Origin: Skermanella pratensis
GTDB lineage: Bacteria; Pseudomonadota; Alphaproteobacteria; Azospirillales; Azospirillaceae
DNA: 64,000 nucleotides
Reading direction: 5' to 3'
Assembly (NCBI RefSeq): GCF_008843145.1
Contig: NZ_CP030265.1
Location: 4,705,001-4,769,000 of the forward strand
Part shown: positions 16,714-16,885 of the stretch, in pieces
Position numbering within the stretch: the first letter of the stretch is position 1
Layout of the letters: each line of letters begins with the position of its first letter
Program-made: the position numbers and the translations under genes
Notes under the pieces: model-generated
Databases searched by the model: none
Seen by the model: only the letters and a program-made list of their open reading frames with translations
Told to the model about the DNA's origin: nothing

Positions 16714-16885
16714 TGTCGGGGGGAACCGGGTGCCCCGTCAGGAGCACCCGGTTCACGGGGTCAGGACACTGAGCCCAACCAAGGTTAGGCACCGCACGTA
16801 GCAGAGTGCCTGCCCCGAGCCCTCGGCGTTTCTCGCACAGTTGCCAGGCGCCGTGCTTTTGGCCGGACGCCGCAGACAAGGACGA
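16714..16885 (+). ncRNA. predicted bridge RNA of IS110 copy 1
   Basis: Extents are estimated. A 5' hairpin (16724-16733 with 16744-16753, perfect 10 bp) is followed by two candidate guide loops. Target loop: a CACT/AGTG stem (16767-16770 with 16805-16808) encloses GCCCAACC (16773-16780), identical to the top strand left of the target core, and CGTAG (16797-16801), complementary to CTACG right of it. Donor loop: ACAGTTGC (16837-16844) is identical to the IS right end at 18173-18180, and AGACAAGG (16874-16881) is complementary to CCTTGTCT at the left end (16682-16689). A GGCG/CGCC stem lies between the donor guides. The arrangement matches the bridge RNA layout known for IS621. The last guide overlaps the recombinase ribosome-binding site. 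Confidence 0.8.

What the first reader, a model, noticed from the sequence alone, without database searches (positions are those of the whole stretch)
16714..16885. A complete bridge RNA can be read from the IS110 5' end: four guide segments match its target and its own ends
In the 5' non-coding end, GCCCAACC (16773-16780) repeats the target top strand at 16676-16683 and CGTAG (16797-16801) is complementary to CTACG at 18180-18184. ACAGTTGC (16837-16844) repeats the IS right end (18173-18180) and AGACAAGG (16874-16881) is complementary to the left end (16682-16689). Each pair is arranged around a stem as in IS621 bridge RNA. The RNA and four guides are seen in the second copy too. This would be a programmable recombination system whose target is a REP-like repeat.
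Basis: partly seen in the sequence, partly recalled or inferred. Interest (0 to 1): 0.9.

Follow-up and report, generated by a model that had tools for sequence, protein, structure and literature searches.

The report
IS110 bridge RNA targeting genome repeats
This is a jumping DNA element whose own small RNA appears to choose where it lands, with guide segments that match both the landing site and its own ends; it is a clear new example of the recently described IS110 bridge-RNA system rather than a new kind of system.

Summary
Confirmed. They belong to an IS110-family element (window 16685-18181; CT cores at 16683-16684 and 18180-18181). The genome holds 8 near-identical copies. Seven sit in GCCCAAC-CT-ACG inside a palindromic repeat; the eighth sits in a non-palindromic GTCCAAC-CT-ACG, one mismatch from the guide. 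What all share is the guide match.

Skermanella rosea gives a natural swap: its element (66-67% identical protein) has left target guide GGCCGACC, and its 4 full copies sit in GGCCGAC-CT-AC. The own genome has 125 intact sites of that class and its element uses none of them; it occupies 7 of 11 sites of its own class.

Guide-target matching exceeded all permutations in 13 family lineages and in 25 usable of 80 loci from diverse bacteria. Both loop stems recur with compensatory changes. A promoter motif forms when the ends join.

Verdict: new member of a known kind; transcription and activity are untested. Side finding: the right end carries a structured hairpin module that also occurs without IS110 genes nearby.

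The parts
16660..16684 (+). left half of the REP-like palindromic target, ending in the CT core (16683-16684); left target GCCCAACCT 16676-16684
16685..18181 (+). IS110-family element, 1497 bp including one CT core copy
   Evidence: boundaries from 8 copies at separate sites and the intact unoccupied composite L020
16714..16889 (+). predicted bridge RNA (start inferred from the junction promoter motif; both ends approximate)
   Evidence: RNA fold -90 kcal/mol against -71.58 (sd 5.13) for shuffles, z -3.59; junction promoter motif
16773..16780 (+). left target guide GCCCAACC
16797..16801 (+). right target guide CGTAG
16837..16844 (+). left donor guide ACAGTTGC (matches the right end of the element)
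16874..16881 (+). right donor guide AGACAAGG (complementary to the left end); overlaps a possible ribosome-binding site AAGGA
   Evidence: overlap read
16893..17891 (+). IS110 recombinase, 332 aa (PF01548 + PF02371)
   Evidence: IS621 and ISCro4 transposases in the PDB at E 2.5e-33 and 5.2e-35
17896..18062 (+). right-end module: two imperfect direct repeats plus a long hairpin (17928-18062), also found without IS110 genes nearby; function unknown
18173..18181 (+). right end ACAGTTG + CT core
18180..18249 (+). right half of the target (CTACG 18180-18184) and the mirror palindrome of the REP-like composite
49308..50816 (-). second window copy of the element with its target halves and the same guides

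Best explanation
An active or recently active IS110-family element with a left-end bridge RNA, which moves as a circle. Joining its ends (ACAGTTG-CT-TGTCT) creates a promoter (TTGCTT, 17 nt, TATAGA) that transcribes a bridge RNA of about 170 nt from the left end. The target loop pairs through GCCCAACC (left) and CGTAG (right) with GCCCAAC-CT-ACG; the donor loop pairs through ACAGTTGC and AGACAAG with the element's own ends. The DEDD/serine recombinase then exchanges strands at the CT cores, inserting the element without extra duplication. Shown by sequence: guides, sites, boundaries, guide-target covariation, catalytic residues, junction promoter motif. Inferred from IS621 and ISEc21: circle, transcription, RNA binding, catalysis.
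For: Exact guides. 8 of 8 copies at guide-matching sites, one of them not a REP. Copies look independent: at E up to 1e-3, flank homology lies within about 180 bp of the insertion, where the repeat composites lie, apart from one 27-bp match. S. rosea swap. Site census: 7 of 11 sites of the own class against 0 of 125 of the other, Fisher p 2e-9 (sites treated as independent, which repeats strictly are not). Permutations: 0 of 200,000 for 13 lineages on each of three measures, 0 of 100,000 for 25 loci on each of four. Donor-loop stem paired in 38, 38, 38 and 35 of 39 sequences at its 4 pairs, three of them with compensatory types. Target-loop stem of 3 bp or more in 36 of 39, against a mean of 14.5 and a maximum of 23 in 2000 shuffles. 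Junction promoter motif TTGCTT-17-TATAGA; over 16 elements the -10 score sum is 52 against a shuffle maximum of 44. D11, E59, D101, D104 and S240 invariant in 8 aligned proteins, against D11, E60, D102, D105, S241 in IS621.
Against: No expression data and no Rfam match. The minimum-energy fold of this one RNA does not show the short target-loop stem, which is only 3 bp here and 2 bp in S. rosea. The right end is longer than is typical of the IS110 group. Some lineages fit poorly: S. rosea right guide 2 contiguous bases, G065 left guide 4 of 8, L089 right guide 0 contiguous, L253 right guide 1 of 6. Left-guide matching in the 13 lineages clears the permutations only narrowly (sum 82, permutation maximum 81; mean for foreign targets 4.68 of 8). 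The promoter motif is poor in 5 of 16 elements (-10 matches of 1-2: L086, L087, L088, L089, L091).
Confidence: 0.94

Rival explanations
1. The recombinase recognises REP palindromes by structure or protein-DNA contacts; the guide matches are incidental.
For: 7 of 8 copies sit in a palindrome, and REPs are known IS targets (PMC1525189, abstract).
Against: One copy sits in a non-palindromic guide-matching site. The more abundant class (125 intact sites) is used by none of the 8 copies. The sister element uses that other class with a matching guide change. Distant relatives with quite different targets keep the match.
Confidence: 0.03
2. The guide-like segments are leftover copies of flanking target and end sequence, with no RNA role.
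For: The left end repeats flanking words, and such words could be duplicated DNA.
Against: Two of the four are reverse complements; the order of the segments around two covarying stems is conserved; the left ends of all 8 copies are identical, including the one at a different site.
Confidence: 0.02
3. A bridge-RNA element that is now inactive: the copies are old and immobile.
For: No activity was tested; one copy has a 1-bp deletion and another has small changes, both partly in the right-end hairpin.
Against: 8 copies almost identical in DNA, all 8 with a 100% identical protein match and no stop inside, argue for recent movement.
Confidence: 0.15

Closest known systems
IS621 bridge recombinase and bridge RNA (PMC11208160, PMC11208158)
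   Same: DEDD + serine recombinase; left-end RNA of similar length (about 177 nt in IS621); two loops with left and right guides; CT core; junction promoter; REP target ending CCTAC (passages seen)
   Different: Different left target; protein similarity distant (E 2.5e-33); long right end with an extra hairpin module
ISEc21 seekRNA, IS110 type (PMC11187229)
   Same: Upstream non-coding RNA with matches to both target strands; junction promoter; natural redirection reported for its relative ISMch6 (abstract and three sections read)
   Different: Target is a segment of IS3-family transposase genes, not a REP; the paper reports a shorter abundant form of 74 nt
ISPpu9 of Pseudomonas putida (PMC8450116) and other REP-targeting IS (PMC1525189)
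   Same: Multi-copy IS110-type element in REPs; ISPpu9 also has an RNA gene (ssr9) downstream of tnp that also occurs alone (passages; abstract)
   Different: No sequence link between ssr9 and the module here was tested

Membership tests
[quoted passage not shown]
   Both Pfam models over cut-off; D11, E59, D101, D104, S240 invariant in 8 relatives
IS110 group (as against IS1111) | bridge RNA in the left end, upstream of the recombinase | tested here: met
   Four guides in order in the 208-nt left end, covarying stems; expression not tested
IS110 group (as against IS1111) | no long subterminal inverted repeats | tested here: met
   Longest exact inverted repeat in the outer 35 nt of both ends is 6 nt; shuffles commonly give 5-6
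IS110 group (as against IS1111) | long left end with a short right end | tested here: not met
   Left end 208 nt (long), but right end about 288 nt. This is a typical rather than a strict feature: PMC11187229 counts 26 of over 350 elements with two long non-coding regions. I therefore file the element in the IS110 family and leave the group label as 'works like the IS110 group'.
bridge-RNA-guided recombination | target guides match the insertion site and change together with it | tested here: met
bridge-RNA-guided recombination | donor guides match the element's own ends across the core | tested here: met
bridge-RNA-guided recombination | promoter reconstituted at the circle junction | tested here: met
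   TTGCTT-17-TATAGA in the joined ends, AACCTT instead of the -35 in the integrated left junction; a sequence motif, not measured activity
bridge-RNA-guided recombination | RNA transcribed and bound by the recombinase; circle forms; insertion is reprogrammable | not testable with these tools
   Needs wet-lab work
REP with RAYT transposase (the target repeat) | Y1 transposase in the genome | tested here: not met
   PF01797: no match in the own genome; the control search found it in 5 of 14 genomes

The most novel reading that the evidence does not exclude
The element carries two structured RNAs: the left-end bridge RNA and, after the recombinase gene, a member of an undescribed structured repeat family that spreads separately (about 150 nt: two 20-nt direct repeats plus a hairpin in which 15 of 28 consensus pairs show compensatory changes across 15 sequences, against a mean of 7.4 and a maximum of 12 in 2000 shuffles). 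In 16 of 19 loci examined no IS110 transposase was matched near it. It may work as a second trans-acting RNA or ride along as a mobile passenger.
Probability: 0.3. Interest if true: 0.6.

Novelty: new member of a known kind. Interest (0 to 1): 0.38.

Why it matters
It adds a well-documented bridge-RNA element with an exact target, donor and RNA, plus a natural guide-swap pair in one genus with a within-genome decoy class. That pair supports the rule that the guide, not the repeat as such, sets the landing site.

Tried and rejected
Rfam, whole window at gathering scores and 16600-18300 at E up to 1: no match. First genome-contig scan with the single protein: no relative; the allowed second scan with an 8-member alignment kept the best 80 of 505 relatives. 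The order-level search returned the same 82 genomes as the family-level one; a class-level draw of 385 genomes, few candidates scored per genome, gave no further relative at E 1e-70.

The first permutation run had the right-guide anchor wrong in two lineages (there 41 of 200,000 permutations reached the left-guide score, 0 the two right-guide scores). It was redone with an anchor rule that does not use the targets, for all 13 lineages and for 11 without G065 and L089; 0 of 200,000 in all six runs. Of the 40 relative loci fetched were left out because an element end was not found by the donor motifs, the contig began at it, or the match was partial (L083, L084, L085, L090, L092, L093, L094, L108, L118). 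Of the 80 loci, 52 failed the motif rules (16 right end, 23 left end, 1 donor guide, 12 right-guide anchor); of the 28 left, 3 were dropped (two repeats of another locus, one cut inside the target). Searches used 39 sequences, 13 lineages plus 26 of those 28. The module alignment used 15 sequences; L262, L268 and L270-L273 were not put in.

RAYT as keeper of the target repeat: not found. Resemblance of the right-end module to the left-end RNA: only short matches, best E 0.028 and inverted. Papers: PMC11208160, PMC11208158 and PMC8450116 seen as passages, PMC11187229 as abstract and three sections, PMC1525189 as abstract. No paper on this element was seen in the listings (11 of 11 shown; none holds the word Skermanella; 20 of 375 shown, none with Skermanella); ISfinder was not available.

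Full report
What is there. The window holds an IS110-family element whose recombinase (16893-17891, 332 aa) matches PF01548 and PF02371 above their cut-offs. Its only sequence relatives of known structure at E up to 1e-3 are the ISCro4 and IS621 transposases. The residues corresponding to the IS621 catalytic set (D11, E60, D102, D105, S241; passages of PMC11208158) are invariant in an alignment of eight relatives (D11, E59, D101, D104, S240 here).

Boundaries. The genome holds 8 full copies. Between the shared ends 4 are identical, 2 differ from them by one shared substitution, one has a 1-bp deletion and one has three small changes. Comparing them, and an intact unoccupied repeat (L020), places the element between two CT dinucleotides, with no other duplication of target sequence. 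At E up to 1e-3 the flanks share homology only within about 180 bp of the insertion, where the REP-like composites lie, apart from one 27-bp match, so the insertions look independent.

Guides. The four segments are exactly as described. Left target guide GCCCAACC and right target guide CGTAG match GCCCAAC-CT-ACG; the donor guides match the ends as joined in a circle, ACAGTTG-CT-TGTCT. None of 20,000 dinucleotide shuffles of the left end holds all four words in order.

Test 1, copies in one genome. Seven copies sit in GCCCAAC-CT-ACG inside a palindrome; the eighth (L004) sits in GTCCAAC-CT-ACG with no palindrome around it. What all sites share is the guide match.

Test 2, a natural swap. A genome of the same genus has four full copies of a sister element (66-67% identical protein). 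It is Skermanella rosea: its contig 4 has the length and the element position of plasmid NZ_CP086114.1. Its left target guide reads GGCCGACC and all four copies sit in GGCCGAC-CT-AC, while the donor guides are the same. The own genome has 125 intact GGCCGACCTAC and 4 intact GCCCAACCTAC sites; S. rosea has 76 and 14. The own element therefore occupies 7 of 11 sites of its class and 0 of 125 of the other; its eighth copy is in neither. The S. rosea element has 4 copies in the second class and none in the first. For the shorter right guide the S. rosea targets agree only in CTAC plus a variable base.

Test 3, wider relatives. Ends and guide positions were found by rules that do not use the target. 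In 13 lineages the right guide matches 3 or more contiguous bases beyond the core in 11 of 13 (mean 4.2 against 0.52 for other lineages' targets), and the left guide 4-8 of 8 (mean 6.3 against 4.68). The sums were above all 200,000 permutations, narrowly for the left guide (82 against a maximum of 81). Among 80 loci from diverse bacteria, several phyla among them, 25 were usable: mean contiguous right-guide match 4.2 against 0.34, left-guide match 5.9 of 8 against 4.5, above all 100,000 permutations. Poor fits exist and are listed under evidence against.

RNA structure. The segment folds better than shuffles (z -3.59). Across 39 sequences the donor-loop stem keeps its four pairs in 38, 38, 38 and 35 of 39, three of them with alternative pair types (no shuffle control was run for this stem). 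A stem of 3 bp or more between the two target guides is present in 36 of 39, against a mean of 14.5 in shuffles. In this element it is 3 bp, in S. rosea 2 bp, and the minimum-energy fold of this RNA does not show it.

Expression. Joining the ends makes TTGCTT-17 nt-TATAGA; at the integrated left junction the -35 position reads AACCTT. TTGCTT with a -10 of three or more matches occurs in 11 of the 16 elements printed, at spacers of 17 to 19 nt; the summed -10 score is above all 5000 shuffles. This agrees with the junction promoter described for IS621 (PMC11208160, passages) and ISEc21 (PMC11187229, section). The right donor guide overlaps a possible ribosome-binding site (AAGGA, 10 nt before the ATG; read), so guide and translation start may be linked; this is inference.

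Known or new. IS110 bridge RNAs, REP targets, guide-target covariation over 5,511 pairs and natural redirection are published (PMC11208160 passages; PMC11187229 sections; PMC1525189 abstract). This is a new member of the IS110 family. What it adds is a clean two-species guide swap with a built-in decoy class. Its right end is longer than is typical of the IS110 group, so I leave the group label open.

Side finding. The right end is long (about 288 nt) because it holds a module of two imperfect direct repeats and a hairpin (17896-18062). DNA matches to it at E up to 1e-3 occur in 25 of 82 family genomes, own and S. rosea included, some of them short and weak. Of 19 further loci, 3 had an IS110 transposase match in the fetched flanks with the eight queries; Pfam matched IS110 models in 5 of the 96 neighbouring open frames that I scanned, out of 144 listed, so more distant IS110 genes may lie near some. 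Across 15 module sequences, 15 of 28 consensus pairs show compensatory changes, against at most 12 in 2000 column shuffles that ignore relatedness. No Rfam family matches the copy in this window. Its function is unknown.

Noticed in passing
window 17896-18062; L172:2501-2630; L256-L273: A structured module with two about 20-nt direct repeats (CATCCCT...GTTCGACC / CATCCCTCCGTCCCGACC) and a covarying hairpin lies in the right end of this IS and also occurs in other places in Azospirillaceae genomes and in Microvirga and Chelativorans plasmid records; no Rfam match for the copy in this window.
   Followed up: partly
own genome G000 (for example C1:127372-127467): A second REP-like class, GGCCGACCTAC, has 125 matches, often as inverted pairs 85 bp apart, yet no Y1/RAYT transposase (PF01797) was found in this genome.
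   Followed up: partly
window 16874-16893: The right donor guide AGACAAGG overlaps a possible ribosome-binding site AAGGA of the recombinase; many relatives carry CAAGG at the same place.
   Followed up: no
L264, L265: Weak IS110 transposase matches lie a few hundred bases from the right-end module, with the module on the opposite strand.
   Followed up: no
L084 (G056:C22, position 1): A 48%-identical relative whose contig begins at the element's left end; its transposase match holds one in-frame stop.
   Followed up: no
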